A DNA stretch of 33,977 nucleotides from the NCBI GenBank assembly GCA_018383815.1, contig JAHAWU010000027.1:1-33977 (forward strand), in the 5' to 3' direction. Each line of letters opens with the position of its first letter. Positions within the stretch are counted from its first letter, which is position 1. Origin of the DNA: Candidatus Jordarchaeia archaeon (lineage in GTDB: Archaea > Asgardarchaeota > Jordiarchaeia > Jordiarchaeales > Jordiarchaeaceae). Below are positions 2,547 through 33,977 of the stretch, one piece after another. The position numbers and the translations under genes were made by a program. The notes under the pieces are model-generated. The model was not told the DNA's origin. It searched no databases and saw only the letters and a program-made list of their open reading frames with translations.

Positions 2547-3350
2547 GTGATGACAATGGGTGCCGTGGTCGTAGGGCTTGACATGGGTTCAGTGTCAACT
2601 AAGGCTGCGGTTCTCCAAGATTCTCGAATGGTGGGGTATGCAATACTCCCCACTGGATTTAATCCTCAAGATTCCGGCAGAAGAGCAATTAATGAAGCTT
2701 GCGAGAAGGCAGGAATCAATCCCAAAGACGTCGTTTATATTGTGGCTACTGGCTACGGCAGAATAAACGCTCCCTTTGCAAATTCTCGAGTAACAGAAAT
2801 AACCTGTCACGGTAAAGGAGCCTTCTTTGCGAATAATTGCGCTCGCACTGTGATTGATGTGGGAGGACAGGACAGCAAAGTCATATCAATTAATGAGCAG
2901 GGCCGAGTAGTAGACTTCCAAATGAATGATAGGTGCGCCGCAGGAACTGGAAGATTCCTAGAAGTCATGATGAAAACACTCGACATGAACTACGAAGAAA
3001 TGTCCCAAGCCGCGATCAACTCGGAAAACCCCTCAAAAATTTCCAACATGTGTACTGTCTTTGCAGAATCCGAAGTAATAACCCTGCTGGCGAAGGGTGA
3101 GAGAAGGGAAAACATTGCGGCGGGACTATGCCAATCCATCGCGGAACGAATAGCAACCATGGTCAAAAGAATAGGATTAAGGGAGGAAGTAGTAATGACT
3201 GGAGGCGTCGCAAAAAACAGAGGCGTAGTCAAACTCTTGGAAAACAAACTAAACACAAAAATATCAGTGCCCGAAGAACCCCAAATAATAGGCGCACTGG
3301 GAGCAGCCCTAGAAGCGAGGGAAGCCATACTCGAAATTAAGCAAAAATAA
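2547..3350 (+). CDS. ATP-dependent activase/reductase (BadF/BadG/BcrA/HgdC family)
   Basis: 267 aa, the usual length for HgdC-type activases. The ASKHA ATPase fold is shown by VVGLDMGSVSTKAAV at the N-terminus, DVGGQDSKV near residue 105 and TGGVAKN near the C-terminus. C130 (NDRCAAGTG) and C169 (NMCTVFAESE) are the two cysteines by which each monomer holds half of a bridging [4Fe-4S] cluster; the spacing matches HgdC. Such proteins couple ATP hydrolysis to electron injection into the partner encoded immediately upstream. GTG 2547, ATG 2550 and ATG 2556 are all in frame and no clear SD chooses between them. Translation is probably coupled to the upstream gene. Confidence 0.9.
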   Translation: MMTMGAVVVGLDMGSVSTKAAVLQDSRMVGYAILPTGFNPQDSGRRAINEACEKAGINPKDVVYIVATGYGRINAPFANSRVTEITCHGKGAFFANNCARTVIDVGGQDSKVISINEQGRVVDFQMNDRCAAGTGRFLEVMMKTLDMNYEEMSQAAINSENPSKISNMCTVFAESEVITLLAKGERRENIAAGLCQSIAERIATMVKRIGLREEVVMTGGVAKNRGVVKLLENKLNTKISVPEEPQIIGALGAALEAREAILEIKQK

Positions 3351-29595: not shown

Positions 29596-30036
29596 ACCAG
29601 AACTTAAAGAAGAGTCTAAATCCATTGTTAATTTGAGTAGAGGATAGCTCCCAGAAAGGTAGGCCAGAAAAACCGATAAAGATCAATGAAGTGTTTCCCC
29701 AAAATAACCAAACAGTACATGAGGGTATTCCACATAACTTATTTGACGCTGCCCACAAATAGATTCGGGGGATTCTCACCTATGGCTTACAAGGAGATCT
29801 AGAAGCAATGAGTGCATCAAGTTAGAACTCTCCTTGTGGGGGGGCGGCTAATTTAGAATCCACTTTTTTCTTTCATAAATTTTTAGCATCCATTCAAAAA
29901 TTTTTACACTATTATTCAGAAAATTTTAATATCCACCCCATTTATATCGGTGTAACAGTTTCTTTTGCTAATTGTAGTTTTCACAGAAAAATTGGTTTAT
30001 GTCTATGTGGAATTGATTTGGTGTGGATGGATGAAT
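29596..30036. promoter_or_regulatory. Intergenic region with promoter of the tandem flavoprotein operon
   Basis: No gene is seen. TTTATATC at 29941-29948 is a plus-strand TATA box, giving a transcription start near 29973 and a leader of about 60 nt. The stretch 29596-29880 has no recognisable content. Confidence 0.4.
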
Positions 30037-31533
30037 ATGTCTGAAAAGTATGATGTGATGGTGGTTGGCGCGGGTCTTGGAGGCCTCTCCGCCGCGGCTT
30101 CGCTGGCTAAGGGTGGACAGAGGGTTCTTTTGCTGGAGAAGCATTATAGGCCTGGTGGCTATGCGGGCAGTTTTGTGCGGGGCAGATTCGAATTTGAAAT
30201 TGCTCTGCATGAACTCTCTGGTCTTAACCTGGATGCTAAACGGGGCTTCTTCTACAAGTATTTGGAAAATCTGGGAATAACAAAAAGGGTTGAATTCGTC
30301 AAGCTGGACACTGTTTACCGCTCCGTATTTTCCGATATGGAGGTAACTGTCCCTGCGGGGAGAGAAGAGGCTGAAGGAGTTTTGGTGGACACCTTTCCCA
30401 ACGAGGCTGAAGGAATAAAACGTTTCATGGCAAGAATGAGTGCCACCAACAGGGCCCTAACCCTAATACAAAGGGGAGAAAGCTTTTCAAACCCCGAAAT
30501 CAAAGAAAACTTCCTACCCTACCTGGACAAAACCCTAGCCGACGTCCTATATAAGGATGTTAAGGACCCTAAAGCCCGGGCGGTTTTGTCCCAACTAATG
30601 GGCTACTGCGGCCTGCCCCCATCAGAACTGGCATACGTAATATACGCCATTGTTTATGACACCTATATTCACTTTGGGGGAGCCCAAATAAAAGGCACAT
30701 CTCAAAGCCTAGTCAACGCCTTTGTAGATGTCATCCAAGAAGCGGGTAGCGAGGTTCGAGTCAACTGTGGAGTTAAAAAAATCCTCACTGAAGGCGACAG
30801 AGTAACAGGAGTGGTGACGGAGAATGGTGAAACCTTCCTCTCAGACCACATAATCTCAAATGTTAATCCATTGACAACCTGCGCCAAAATGATTGATGTG
30901 GACAAGGTTCCCAGTTCCTTTTTTGAAAAATTGCAAACCAAAGAAATCGCTATGGGAACCATGAACGTGTACCTGGGACTCGACGCACCCCACCAAGAAC
31001 TGGGAATAGACGAGTTCGAAATATTCTTTAACGCGGGTCACGACTTCGACGCAGCCTGGGCAAAAAGTAGAGTCAGCATAGAACCCGCAGACTTCGCCCT
31101 AGCCACCTACAACGCTGCATACCCGGAAGCCTCTCCCCCAGGAACCACAGCTGCAGTTATCACCACCCTAAGCTACGCTGAACCCTGGTACAAAGTCCCC
31201 CCATCAGAATACGTAGAAACCAAGAACAGGATGGGCGAAAAACTACTAAAAAAATTAGAAAAATTCTACCCCGGAATCAGAGAACACATAGAGGTCATTG
31301 AAGTATCCACACCCCTAACAAACATGCGCTACACTGGTAATCCCGGAGGCTCCATCCTTGGAACCCCCTACAGCCCCAACAACATATTTGGAAACCGTCT
31401 ACCCCAACAGGGACCCTTGAAGGGACTGTACTTTGCGGGAGCCTGGACTCAGATAGGGGGAGGATTCCAGACCTGCATTATGTCCGGGATGTTAGCCGCA
31501 CAAACAGTAATGGCCCAACTAGTGAAAAAGTAG
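30037..31533 (+). CDS. CrtI/RetSat-type FAD-dependent oxidoreductase, copy 1
   Basis: 498 aa from ATG 30037, the position homologous to the start of copy 2; ATG 30031 is equally usable. The N-terminal dinucleotide motif is VMVVGAGLGGLSAAASLA, followed by LLLEKHYRPGGYAGSF, typical of phytoene desaturase, carotenoid isomerase and retinol saturase relatives. The C-terminus has GLYFAGAWTQIGGGFQT and MSGMLAAQ, the second FAD segment. These enzymes add, remove or isomerise C=C bonds in isoprenoid chains; the substrate is unknown. No phytoene synthase gene is visible. It is the first gene of a tandem pair. Confidence 0.88.
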   Translation: MSEKYDVMVVGAGLGGLSAAASLAKGGQRVLLLEKHYRPGGYAGSFVRGRFEFEIALHELSGLNLDAKRGFFYKYLENLGITKRVEFVKLDTVYRSVFSDMEVTVPAGREEAEGVLVDTFPNEAEGIKRFMARMSATNRALTLIQRGESFSNPEIKENFLPYLDKTLADVLYKDVKDPKARAVLSQLMGYCGLPPSELAYVIYAIVYDTYIHFGGAQIKGTSQSLVNAFVDVIQEAGSEVRVNCGVKKILTEGDRVTGVVTENGETFLSDHIISNVNPLTTCAKMIDVDKVPSSFFEKLQTKEIAMGTMNVYLGLDAPHQELGIDEFEIFFNAGHDFDAAWAKSRVSIEPADFALATYNAAYPEASPPGTTAAVITTLSYAEPWYKVPPSEYVETKNRMGEKLLKKLEKFYPGIREHIEVIEVSTPLTNMRYTGNPGGSILGTPYSPNNIFGNRLPQQGPLKGLYFAGAWTQIGGGFQTCIMSGMLAAQTVMAQLVKK

Positions 31534-31544
31534 GGGGAAACAGT

Positions 31545-33044
31545 ATTTCCGAGAAGTATGACGCCATAGTTATTGGGGCAGGTATGGGGGGACTCTCCGC
31601 TGCCGCCACTCTCGCCACTAACGGACAAAGGGTTTTGCTGCTGGAAAAACACTGGAGACCTGGCGGTTATGCGGGCAGTTTTGTGCGGGGCAGATTCGAA
31701 TTCGAAATCGCCCTCCACGTGCTATCCGGTTTGGACCTAGAGGGAAAGCGTGGTTCACTCTACAGGAATTTTGAGAGCCTAGGAATTATGAAAAGAGTGG
31801 ACTTTGTTAGGGTGGATAATTTTTACAAAGCAGTTTATCCCGACATGGAGATTACAGTGCCCGCTAACCGGGAGGCTGCGGAAGAAGTTTTAGTGGATGC
31901 GTTTCCCCACGAGTCGGAGGGAATAAAGCGTTTCCTAGACAGAATGGCGGCTACAAATAGGGCCCTGGCACTGTTGACCCGCACGGGAGACATTTCCCAG
32001 AAGGAGGTTAAAGAAGACTTTCTTGCGTACCGAGGAAAAACCCTAGCCGACGTCCTGTATGCCGACGTTAAGGATGCTAAGGCTCGTGCCGTGTTATCCC
32101 AAATTATGGGCTATTTTGGTTTGCCACCCTCCCAGGTTTCATACATAGTGTATGCGACTGCCTATGATACCCTTCTGAGATATGGAATAGCCCAAATTAA
32201 GGGCACCTCCCAGACTCTTTCCAACGCCTTCGTAGATATTATCGAGGAAAAGAATAGCGAGGTTAGGCTCAACTGCGGAGTTAAAAAAATCCTCACCGAA
32301 GGCAACAGAGTAAAAGGAGTGCTAACCGAAAACAATGAAAAAATACTTTCAGACTACATGGTATCAAATGTTAATCCCCTAACCACGTGCGCCGCAATGA
32401 TTGGAGTGGAGAAGGTTCCCCACTCCTTCTTTGATAACCTGCAAAAACACGAGATTGCTGTGGGAACCCTAAACGTTTACATGGGACTTGACGCTCCCCG
32501 CCAAGAACTGGGAATAGACGAGTTTGAAACGTTTATCAATTTGGGCTACGACTTTGATGCCAACTGGTCAAAAAGCCGCATAAGCGTTGAACCAGCAGAT
32601 TTTGCGGTGGCCACCTATAACTGTGCCTATTCGGAAGCCTCCCCTCCAGGCACCACCATAATGGTGCTTTGCACCCTAAGCCATGCTCAGCCCTGGTACA
32701 AAATTCCCCCCTCAGAATACGTGGCCACCAAAAATAGGATGGCCGAAAAAATGCTTGAAAGAACGGAAAAAGTCTATCCAGGACTAAGGGAACACATGGA
32801 GGTAGTAGAAGTGTCAACGCCCCTAACCAACATGAGGTACACTGGCAATCCTGGCGGCTCCATCCTTGGAACACCCTACAGTCCAAACAACGTATTCCTG
32901 GACAGATTACCCCAAGAGGGCCCACTCAAGGGACTCTACTTTGCTGGAGCTTGGACACAGATAGGGGGAGGATTCCAGACCTGCATCACGTCCGGAATAA
33001 TGGCTGCACAAAAACTAATGCTTGAAAAAATGAAAAAAGGATAA
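31545..33044 (+). CDS. CrtI/RetSat-type FAD-dependent oxidoreductase, copy 2 (probable ATT start)
   Basis: 499 aa. It closely matches copy 1 along its length: VIGAGMGGLSAAATLA, LLLEKHWRPGGYAGSF and GLYFAGAWTQIGGGFQT. The first ATG in frame (31584) lies inside the GxGxxG FAD motif and cannot be the start. No ATG, GTG or TTG occurs upstream in the frame. ATT at 31545 aligns with the ATG of copy 1 (ISEKYDA versus MSEKYDV) and has AGGGGG (31532-31537) 7 bases upstream, overlapping the copy 1 stop codon. Initiation at ATT, coupled to copy 1, is the simplest reading; a start-codon mutation is the alternative. Confidence 0.85.
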   Translation: MSEKYDAIVIGAGMGGLSAAATLATNGQRVLLLEKHWRPGGYAGSFVRGRFEFEIALHVLSGLDLEGKRGSLYRNFESLGIMKRVDFVRVDNFYKAVYPDMEITVPANREAAEEVLVDAFPHESEGIKRFLDRMAATNRALALLTRTGDISQKEVKEDFLAYRGKTLADVLYADVKDAKARAVLSQIMGYFGLPPSQVSYIVYATAYDTLLRYGIAQIKGTSQTLSNAFVDIIEEKNSEVRLNCGVKKILTEGNRVKGVLTENNEKILSDYMVSNVNPLTTCAAMIGVEKVPHSFFDNLQKHEIAVGTLNVYMGLDAPRQELGIDEFETFINLGYDFDANWSKSRISVEPADFAVATYNCAYSEASPPGTTIMVLCTLSHAQPWYKIPPSEYVATKNRMAEKMLERTEKVYPGLREHMEVVEVSTPLTNMRYTGNPGGSILGTPYSPNNVFLDRLPQEGPLKGLYFAGAWTQIGGGFQTCITSGIMAAQKLMLEKMKKG

Positions 33045-33179: not shown

Positions 33180-33659
33180 CTAATATTCGGTCTTATCGGG
33201 TTTCAAATTCCCGTTTTTCCGTTGGACGAAACTTGCAATGTGCTCCCTTACAAATAGCGTGTTTACACCATGGAGAAAACTAGTGAGAATTATTGAGAGT
33301 AATAGGATTGCGCTAACTTCACTATCGTACATTAATACTTTACTAAGAAGAAATGCAATTGCAAACAATAAAGCCAATGCGAAGAGTGTCCGCCCTAAGA
33401 TAATCGCAGCTCTTCCTTCAGATCCTTTACTCGCTAAGCTTCTAATAAACACCCTCACATCCTTGTACCGTTCGAACCCCTTAAAACGCCTTAGAAACCG
33501 AATAATATCCAAATCCCAGAACCAAGTGACGTATAACACGCAAGAAGCCACGAAAACAGCCACCAAAAACACCGTGAGTGGAGTAACTATAAGATGCGTC
33601 GATAAGATGAAATCATCCTGCAGATAAACGAGTCTCAGCCCGAAGGAATAGCTTAGCAA
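33180..33659 (-). CDS. Small multi-pass membrane protein, unknown
   Basis: 159 aa from TTG 33659. There are three hydrophobic segments, about residues 20-46 (LIVTPLTVFLVAVFVASCVLY), 88-108 (LGRTLFALALLFAIAFLLSK) and 113-130 (SAILLLSIILTSFL). A basic cytoplasmic-type loop lies between the first and second (RFLRRFKGFERYKDVR). No family is recognised. A minus-strand TATA-like AATATAAAC near 33683-33691 lies about 27 bases upstream, suggesting a leaderless transcript. It is immediately next to the IS110-type element. Confidence 0.55.
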   Translation of the reverse strand: MLSYSFGLRLVYLQDDFILSTHLIVTPLTVFLVAVFVASCVLYVTWFWDLDIIRFLRRFKGFERYKDVRVFIRSLASKGSEGRAAIILGRTLFALALLFAIAFLLSKVLMYDSEVSAILLLSIILTSFLHGVNTLFVREHIASFVQRKNGNLKPDKTEY

Positions 33660-33682
33660 GTAAAAATAACCACTTGACTATG

Positions 33683-33690
33683 TTTATATT
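33683..33690 (+). promoter_or_regulatory. TATA box upstream of the IS110 5' RNA
   Basis: TTTATATT on the plus strand predicts a transcription start about 25 bases on, near 33714. This coincides with the 5' edge of the first predicted hairpin (33715-33717). The same AT-rich box may also serve the minus-strand membrane-protein gene. Confidence 0.45.
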
Positions 33691-33714
33691 AGGGATTTAC
33701 CCATTTAGAGGATA

Positions 33715-33898
33715 GTGGTCGGAAAAACCCTCTATGTGGGTGTTCGGGCGCCTGCTGCTAGAGGCGACCCTCGTAACCACTTATTAAAAGAGGTAACCGC
33801 GCCACCCTCAATGAAGTCAAGTGCGCCGTTTTTTGAGGCTCAGTATAACCTTCCGGGGGCGCGGCGACCACAAAAGTGAAGGAGGAGGCGAATCCTCC
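33715..33898 (+). ncRNA. Candidate IS110 bridge RNA (5' structured region)
   Basis: There are two strong nested hairpins. Hairpin 1: GGTCG (33717-33721) pairs with CGACC (33765-33769), then after a 7-base bulge CCTCTA (33729-33734) pairs with TAGAGG (33759-33764), with GGTG/CGCC inside. Hairpin 2: GGT/ACC (33792-33794, 33867-33869), CCGCGCC/GGCGCGG (33797-33803, 33858-33864) and CCTCAA/TTGAGG (33806-33811, 33833-33838). Hairpin 2 has a 21-base terminal loop and a 2-by-19 internal loop. IS110-group elements encode a bridge RNA here, between left end and recombinase, whose loops pair with target and donor DNA. Guide assignment needs the element ends. Confidence 0.5.
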
Positions 33899-33900
33899 TT
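33879..33900 (+). promoter_or_regulatory. Hairpin sequestering the SD and start of the IS110 recombinase
   Basis: AAGGAGGA (33879-33886) pairs perfectly with TCCTCCTT (33893-33900) around a 6-base loop. The 5' arm is the recombinase SD, and the 3' arm includes the first two bases of the TTG start at 33899. When folded it should block ribosome binding, keeping recombinase expression low. Confidence 0.55.
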
Positions 33901-33977
33901 GAACTATGTAGGAGTTGATGTGAGTAAAAAGTTTTTCGATTGCTGGGATCCGCGCAGGCGGGTCACCGGAAGAGTTG
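33899..33977 (+). CDS. IS110-family recombinase (N-terminus only, cut by window end)
   Basis: 26 codons are visible, beginning TTG-AAC-TAT and reading NYVGVDVSKKFFDCW. VGVDVSKK is the hallmark first motif of the IS110 DEDD (RuvC-like) domain, and its Asp is the first catalytic residue. These recombinases work with a bridge RNA to join donor and target DNA. The start is TTG at 33899, with SD GGAGGAGG at 33881-33888. The rest, including the C-terminal Ser-containing domain, lies beyond the window. Confidence 0.75.
   Translation, partial: MNYVGVDVSKKFFDCWDPRRRVTGRV

What the first reader, a model, noticed from the sequence alone, without database searches (positions are those of the whole stretch)
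33683..33977. Archaeal IS110 element with a candidate bridge RNA upstream of the recombinase
Seen: a TATA box (33683-33690) predicts a transcript starting at the edge of two GC-rich hairpins with internal loops, ending at the VGVDVSKK recombinase start. Known: IS110-group elements carry a bridge RNA between left end and recombinase, with target- and donor-binding loops. Inference: this is such an RNA in an archaeon, where few have been characterised. Loops at 33735-33758, 33812-33832 and 33839-33857 are the places to look for guides.
Basis: partly seen in the sequence, partly recalled or inferred. Interest (0 to 1): 0.72.

Follow-up and report, generated by a model that had tools for sequence, protein, structure and literature searches.

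The report
Archaeal bridge RNA, guides in reversed order
A jumping gene in a probably archaeal genome carries, just ahead of its recombinase gene, an RNA whose four short guide stretches match its own ends and its insertion sites, in the opposite order to the best-known bacterial relatives.

Summary
The window ends inside a multi-copy IS110-family element. Eight left ends and seven right ends of it lie in the same genome. Four insertions were joined left to right through a sister species whose sites are empty; each empty site has one AC at the junction and each insertion has AC at both ends, so the core dinucleotide is AC. The structured leader (33711-33873) holds four guides, each ending at the core: RTG 33732-33741, LTG 33773-33780, RDG 33815-33822, LDG 33843-33849. 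Scans of the whole RNA put the best right-flank complement and the best core-anchored left-flank match there (0 of 5,000 null draws reached either). One insertion pairs 10/10 with its RTG. What is new is the order: RTG-LTG-RDG-LDG, the reverse of IS621 and the target-guide order reported for IS1111 elements, yet the RNA lies upstream of the recombinase as in the IS110 group; only 22 bases, core included, follow the gene. The middle of the recombinase, RNA expression and activity are untested. One of my three pairing predictions failed.

The parts
33183..33674 (-). Host membrane-protein gene interrupted by the insertion; its N-terminal part lies at the end of contig C150 next to a right end of the element
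   Evidence: ortholog in G003:C149 with its N-terminus in place, 55% identical; N-terminal half in own genome
33664..33671 (+). Left target flank AAATAACC
   Evidence: 7 of 8 bases as in the empty site AAATAACT-AC-CGAGAGG of G003
33672..33673 (+). Core dinucleotide AC
   Evidence: single AC at the junction in four empty sites, AC at both ends of the four insertions
33674..33898 (+). Left end of the element, 225 non-coding bases up to the recombinase start
   Evidence: found whole or in part at 8 places in the own genome
33683..33690 (+). TATA box TTTATATT, about 25 bp before the structured RNA
   Evidence: promoter role inferred
33711..33873 (+). Predicted bridge RNA: outer stem 33715-33721 with 33865-33871, target-binding loop, donor-binding loop
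   Evidence: transcript ends inferred
33732..33741 (+). RTG, CUAUGUGG-GU, pairs with core + right target top strand
   Evidence: best complement of the 7 right flanks in a scan of the whole RNA; 10/10 with AC-CCACATAG at C122
33746..33770 (+). Hairpin between RTG and LTG, tip of the target-binding loop
33773..33780 (+). LTG, GUAACC-AC, same letters as left target + core (pairs with the bottom strand)
   Evidence: best core-anchored match of the 8 left flanks (28/48, 0 of 5000 null draws); differs together with its flank in copy C163
33815..33822 (+). RDG, AGUCAA-GU, pairs with core + left end AC-TTGACT
   Evidence: exact 8-base complement; 0.5% of 1,700 AC sites of the window do as well
33843..33849 (+). 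LDG, GUAUA-AC, same letters as right end + core
   Evidence: exact 7-base match to the right end on C150; 1.5% of 1,700 AC sites do as well
33879..33900 (+). Hairpin that buries the GGAGGAGG ribosome-binding sequence just before the TTG start
   Evidence: identical in the 4 other copies checked; regulatory role inferred
33899..33977 (+). Start of the DEDD recombinase gene (TTG), cut by the end of the contig
   Evidence: PF01548 in sister copy C203

Best explanation
This is the left end of an IS110-family insertion sequence whose upstream leader is a bridge RNA. The RNA has two loops. In each, the 5' strand pairs with the top strand to the right of the core and the 3' strand pairs with the bottom strand to the left of it, so the order along the RNA is RTG-LTG-RDG-LDG. 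The target loop selects sites of the kind (TAA)CC-AC-CYA..., the donor loop recognises the joined element ends GTATA-AC-TTGACT, and the recombinase exchanges strands at the AC core, leaving AC at both ends. Shown: element ends, core, empty sites, guide matches, guide order, and variation of the target guides between copies. Inferred: transcription from the TATA box, RNA binding by the recombinase, a circular intermediate, and strand exchange as in IS621.
For: Eight left ends and seven right ends identical up to GTATA-AC over the stretch each contig holds. Four insertions joined by gene continuity or synteny, with the empty site in G003 (window/C150; C133/C122; C159/C32 and C107/C22). Core-anchored scans of the whole RNA: 8 left flanks peak at 33779 (28 of 48; null mean 16.3, maximum 26), 7 right flanks at 33740 (35 of 56 strict; null mean 19.3, maximum 30); 0 of 5,000 draws reach either. 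The right junction of C122 pairs 10/10 with the RTG of its own copy C133. In C163 the LTG reads AUCCCC-AC and the flank CCCCC-AC, against GUAACC-AC in the other seven. Both donor guides are exact. RTG and LTG bracket a strong hairpin, RDG and LDG a weak one, the geometry of bridge-RNA loops. Only 22 bases, core included, follow the recombinase stop codon, leaving no room for a downstream RNA.
Against: No RNA data, and no homologues for covariation. The unconstrained best fold pairs 13 of the 33 guide bases; freeing all four guides costs 14.6 kcal/mol, less than most random choices (3.7% of 1,000 do as well) but not free. Without anchoring on the core, the best left-flank match is the LDG region at 33845 (31 of 48), above the LTG (28 of 48), which ties with GTAACC at 33793. 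Three of the four joined right targets match their own RTG only 7/10 with wobble; for two of them (C150, C32) the RTG of other copies does as well or better, for C22 its own is best by one base. C22 has GT between core and CCACAC. The pairing C203-C32 that I predicted from guide variants was wrong. At C107/C22 the last 6 bases on the left and first 17 on the right were not covered by the BLAST alignment to G003 and were aligned by eye.
Confidence: 0.85

Rival explanations
1. A bridge RNA with the ordinary IS621 order (LTG-RTG-LDG-RDG), in which I took the wrong segment for the LTG.
For: An A/C-rich stretch 5' of the RTG (33724, AAAACC) matches the left flanks 26/48 when the core is ignored.
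Against: It is followed by CU, not by the core AC; with the core required the peak is 33779 by far (28 against 22 for the next). The donor guides independently show the same reversed order. C163 differs at 33773, together with its flank.
Confidence: 0.07
2. The guiding RNA is made from the other strand, so that the apparent order is an artefact of the reading direction.
For: No transcript data exist, and inverted-repeat structure can fold on either strand (not computed for the other strand).
Against: On the sense strand all four guides end 3' at the core, as LTG and RTG do in IS621 (PMC11208158, passages); on the other strand all four would begin with it. The TATA box lies at a usual archaeal distance (recalled) on the sense strand.
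Confidence: 0.04
3. A structured leader that only regulates translation of the recombinase; target choice is made by the protein and the matches are chance.
For: A hairpin hides the ribosome-binding sequence. Folding is better than shuffles.
Against: Four separate matches, all ending at the core, two of them 0 of 5,000 in null draws over the whole RNA and two exact to the element ends.
Confidence: 0.04

Closest known systems
IS621 bridge RNA (IS110 group; Durrant 2024 PMC11208160, abstract, section 12, part 1 of section 43 and passages; Hiraizumi 2024 PMC11208158, passages)
   Same: RNA in the left end upstream of the recombinase; two loops, one for target and one for donor, target loop first; four guides that include the core dinucleotide
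   Different: Core AC instead of CT; RTG and RDG lie 5' of LTG and LDG (reverse order); RTG match up to 10 bases including the core; host probably an archaeon
ISEc21 seekRNA (IS110 family; Siddiquee 2024 PMC11187229, abstract, sections 6, 12, 13 and passages)
   Same: Upstream non-coding region; both target strands matched
   Different: There the top-strand match is 3' of the bottom-strand match; here it is 5'
IS1111-type seekRNAs (ISEc11, ISPa11, ISKpn4; PMC11187229, passages)
   Different: RNA downstream of the transposase and subterminal inverted repeats of usually 11-13 bp; here RNA upstream and only a 9/11 resemblance of the ends that shuffles match 29% of the time
ISMtsp17 (IS1111 relative with upstream NCR, named in PMC11187229, section 6)
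   Same: Upstream region in an element otherwise of IS1111 kind
   Different: Its guide order is not given in the sections and passages read, so it cannot be compared

Membership tests
IS110 family (broad) | N-terminal DEDD (RuvC-like) domain, PF01548 | tested here: met
   34.2 bits over cut-off 29 in copy C203, which has stops in frame; the window holds only the first 26 codons and alone gives no hit
IS110 family (broad) | C-terminal domain PF02371 with conserved serine | not testable with these tools
   no contig found in the own genome holds the middle of the gene; the PF02371 hits over the cut-off (C177, C142) belong to another IS110 element, the remaining one (C117) is below it; only the last 32 residues are known
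IS110 family (broad) | Clean insertion with a short core shared by target and element, no long terminal repeats | tested here: met
   four empty sites, core AC
Bridge RNA / seekRNA | Two loops complementary to both strands of target and of donor | tested here: met
Bridge RNA / seekRNA | RNA expressed and bound by the recombinase | not testable with these tools
   needs RNA sequencing or purification
IS110 group | RNA in the left end, upstream of the recombinase | tested here: met
   225 non-coding bases left; 22 right, core included
IS110 group | Bottom-strand guide 5' of top-strand guide in each loop | tested here: not met
   order RTG-LTG-RDG-LDG
IS1111 group | Top-strand guide 5' of bottom-strand guide | tested here: met
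IS1111 group | RNA downstream of the transposase | tested here: not met
   22 bases after the stop codon, core included
IS1111 group | Subterminal inverted repeats of 11-13 bp | tested here: inconclusive
   TATGTTTATAT against TACGTTTAAAT, 9/11; shuffles do as well in 29% of 5,000
IS1111 group | Transposase of IS1111 kind | tested here: inconclusive
   N-terminal fragment scores 52 bits with a Rhizobium IS110-family protein, 26 bits with IS5075 (IS1111 type); one yardstick and a 140-residue fragment only

The most novel reading that the evidence does not exclude
A class of bridge RNAs in which both loops are turned round relative to the element (RTG-LTG-RDG-LDG) while the RNA stays in the left end: position of the IS110 group, guide order of the IS1111 group. 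It would show that RNA position and guide order can separate in evolution, and that an archaeal DEDD recombinase works with the loops in this orientation.
Probability: 0.7. Interest if true: 0.7.

Novelty: new variant of a known kind. Interest (0 to 1): 0.62.

Why it matters
Bridge RNAs guide recombination between two DNAs and can be reprogrammed (PMC11208160, abstract); the elements tested in the passages read are bacterial. Here is a likely archaeal one with ends, core, four empty sites and all four guides defined by comparison, and with several guide variants in one genome. Its guide order breaks the association reported between RNA position (upstream or downstream) and guide order. It gives a concrete system to ask how the recombinase tells left from right, and a possible start for recombination tools outside the IS621 type.

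Tried and rejected
Close relatives: none of the protein beyond 28-33% identity in 195 and then 227 genomes of the phylum (the second search asked for 400 and got 227); none in viral contigs (by protein, by one exact left-end pattern), phages (one hit, 28%, E 0.03), genome contigs (a second scan with a two-sequence alignment gave two hits at 27-28%), plasmids (46 records at E up to 1, best 32%). The scans of viral and genome contigs use short exact or near-exact peptide patterns, so moderately diverged relatives can be missed. No covariation analysis across species and no RNA model were possible.

Recombinase middle: not found on any contig; neither a fold prediction nor a tree was tried on the fragments.

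Subterminal repeats of IS1111 kind: not better than shuffles. Pair prediction C203-C32 from guide variants: wrong, C32 belongs to C159. Pairings of left ends C213, C24, C203 with right ends C196, C36, C29 stay open. C234 (72% right-end remnant) was left out of the right-flank count; the other 16 weaker rows (the near-palindrome on the reverse strand and short hits) were also dropped. The remnant in G001:C25 is cut before the guides and was not counted; a 22-base match in G076 was fetched and not followed.

Literature: seven searches listed no paper whose title or abstract start announces an archaeal bridge RNA or an upstream RNA with this order; most listed papers were not opened. Figures and supplements were not seen, so it may be shown in a figure, for instance among the six elements of Durrant's Extended Data Fig. 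10.

Full report
What is there. The window is contig C167 of a 3.79 Mb, 234-contig genome. Its last 306 bases are the core and left end of a repeated element. The same sequence, whole or in part, occurs at seven more places: six contigs end inside it (C203 only after some 500 bases of a broken gene copy), and C163 holds a 119-base remnant inside a contig. That is why the window stops here: the assembly breaks in the repeat (inference).

Recombinase. The frame from TTG 33899 begins NYVGVDVSKKFFDCWDP. Copy C203 continues it for about 140 codons with two stops on the way and scores 34.2 bits with PF01548 (cut-off 29) and 40 bits, below its cut-off of 140, with NCBIfam's IS110 model. In that copy two of the positions that align with acidic residues of other IS110 proteins read D for E and E for D; since the copy is broken, this may be decay. 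The last 32 residues, LLRIMYTVWKNGVDYEPSLVGTGVAAVTAQAQ, come from a right end. The middle was not found in the assembly.

Ends and core. The insertion splits a membrane-protein gene (33183-33674, minus strand). Its ortholog in sister genome G003 (55% identical) has its N-terminus in place, and the missing N-terminal half lies at the end of contig C150 in the own genome, beside the right end of the element. Searching with that right end gave seven right ends without a mismatch, one 72% remnant and 16 weaker rows. The own-genome target is AAATAACC-AC-CCAGAGG; G003 has AAATAACT-AC-CGAGAGG, the same length. Three more insertions were joined through G003: C133/C122 (CTCTCC-AC-CCAACATAATT empty), C159/C32 (CCTAAAC-AC-CTACCAAAC empty) and C107/C22 (TCTGGT-AC-GCCCACATG empty). 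In all four the empty site has one AC at the junction and the insertion has AC at each end. The first site was joined by gene continuity, the others by BLAST synteny; at C107/C22 the junction itself was aligned by eye over 21 bases.

Guides. I scanned the whole RNA against the flanks. For the seven right flanks the best complement is ATGTGG at 33734-33739, directly before GT (29 of 42 strict; maximum of 3,000 null draws 25). For the eight left flanks the best match next to AC is GTAACC-AC at 33773-33780 (28 of 48; null maximum 26 of 5,000 draws); without the core requirement the look-alike ATAACC at 33845 scores 31 and GTAACC at 33793 ties at 28. The right junction at C122, AC-CCACATAG, pairs with all ten bases of the RTG of its own copy C133; the other three joined insertions reach 7 of 10 with wobble. 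The element's own ends are matched exactly: AGTCAAGT (33815-33822) to AC-TTGACT and GTATAAC (33843-33849) to the right end GTATA-AC; 0.5% and 1.5% of 1,700 AC sites in the window would do so. I had written down the RDG before the right end was known; the LDG was recorded only after it.

Natural variation. The target guides vary between copies while the rest is nearly constant. RTG variants: CUAUGUGGGU (C167, C133), CUGUGUGGGU (C213, C107), AUAUGUGGGU (C159, C24), CUGGGUGGGU (C203, C163). In C163 the LTG is AUCCCC-AC and the left flank CCCCC-AC; the other seven copies share GUAACC-AC. From the RTG variants I predicted three partners before testing: C133-C122, and C213 or C107 with C22, were right; C203-C32 was wrong. 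Of the three imperfect sites, only C22 is matched best by its own copy's RTG; C150 is matched equally by others and C32 better by two others. This is suggestive of guide change, not proof.

Structure. RTG and LTG stand on the two sides of hairpin 33746-33770, RDG and LDG on the two sides of a short, weak tip; an outer stem (33715-33721 with 33865-33871) closes the whole. The free best fold pairs 13 of the 33 guide bases. Holding all four guides open costs 14.6 kcal/mol; 3.7% of 1,000 random sets of segments cost no more. A hairpin at 33879-33900 hides the ribosome-binding sequence of the recombinase.

Comparison. [quoted passage not shown] PMC11208158, passages). Siddiquee et al. report that IS1111 seekRNAs, made downstream of the transposase, have the top-strand complement first, whereas ISEc21 of the IS110 family, with an upstream RNA, has the reverse (PMC11187229, abstract, sections 6, 12 and 13, passages). 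That comparison concerns target guides and rests on four IS1111 and one IS110 elements. The present element has the upstream position and the IS1111 order, in both loops. Its N-terminal recombinase fragment is nearer to Rhizobium IS110-family proteins than to the single IS1111 yardstick used (52 against 26 bits). I therefore call it a bridge-RNA element of the IS110 family whose subgroup is unassigned, and a new variant in its guide order.

Limits. There are no transcript data, no close relatives, an incomplete recombinase and an unnamed host. The seven literature searches do not cover figures or closed journals.

Noticed in passing
L051 1663-1686 (contig C150), beside the right end: Near-palindrome GGTTACTGCGCCTGCGCAGTAACC (22 of 24 bases) across the recombinase stop codon, about 20 bases from the right end, present in all seven right ends; a possible terminator or structured end.
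   Followed up: partly
L036 about 3260-3325 (G001:C25:11270): Remnant of a related left end in a sister species; its left flank CCTTCAACCAC is the exact reverse complement of GTGGTTGAAGG inside the remnant, as if the outer stem of the RNA matched the flank.
   Followed up: partly
L016, L017, L018 (contigs C177, C181, C142): A second IS110-type family in the same genome (GCGVDVHKD...); on C177 the gene runs to the contig edge. Its RNA and guide order were not examined.
   Followed up: no
L008 1488-1500 and L019 538-550 (contigs C163, C213): A shared motif GGTAATGCATAGC near two copies of the element, perhaps part of a small repeat of its own.
   Followed up: no
L059 (C234:9999-10103): 72% identical right-end remnant followed by a repeated GTATAAC, so an older related element probably once moved in this genome.
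   Followed up: partly
L050 (G003:C149): Run of diverged paralogs of the interrupted membrane protein alternating with another protein family.
   Followed up: no
window 29965-33041: Two neighbouring FAD-dependent amine-oxidase-family genes just before the element.
   Followed up: no
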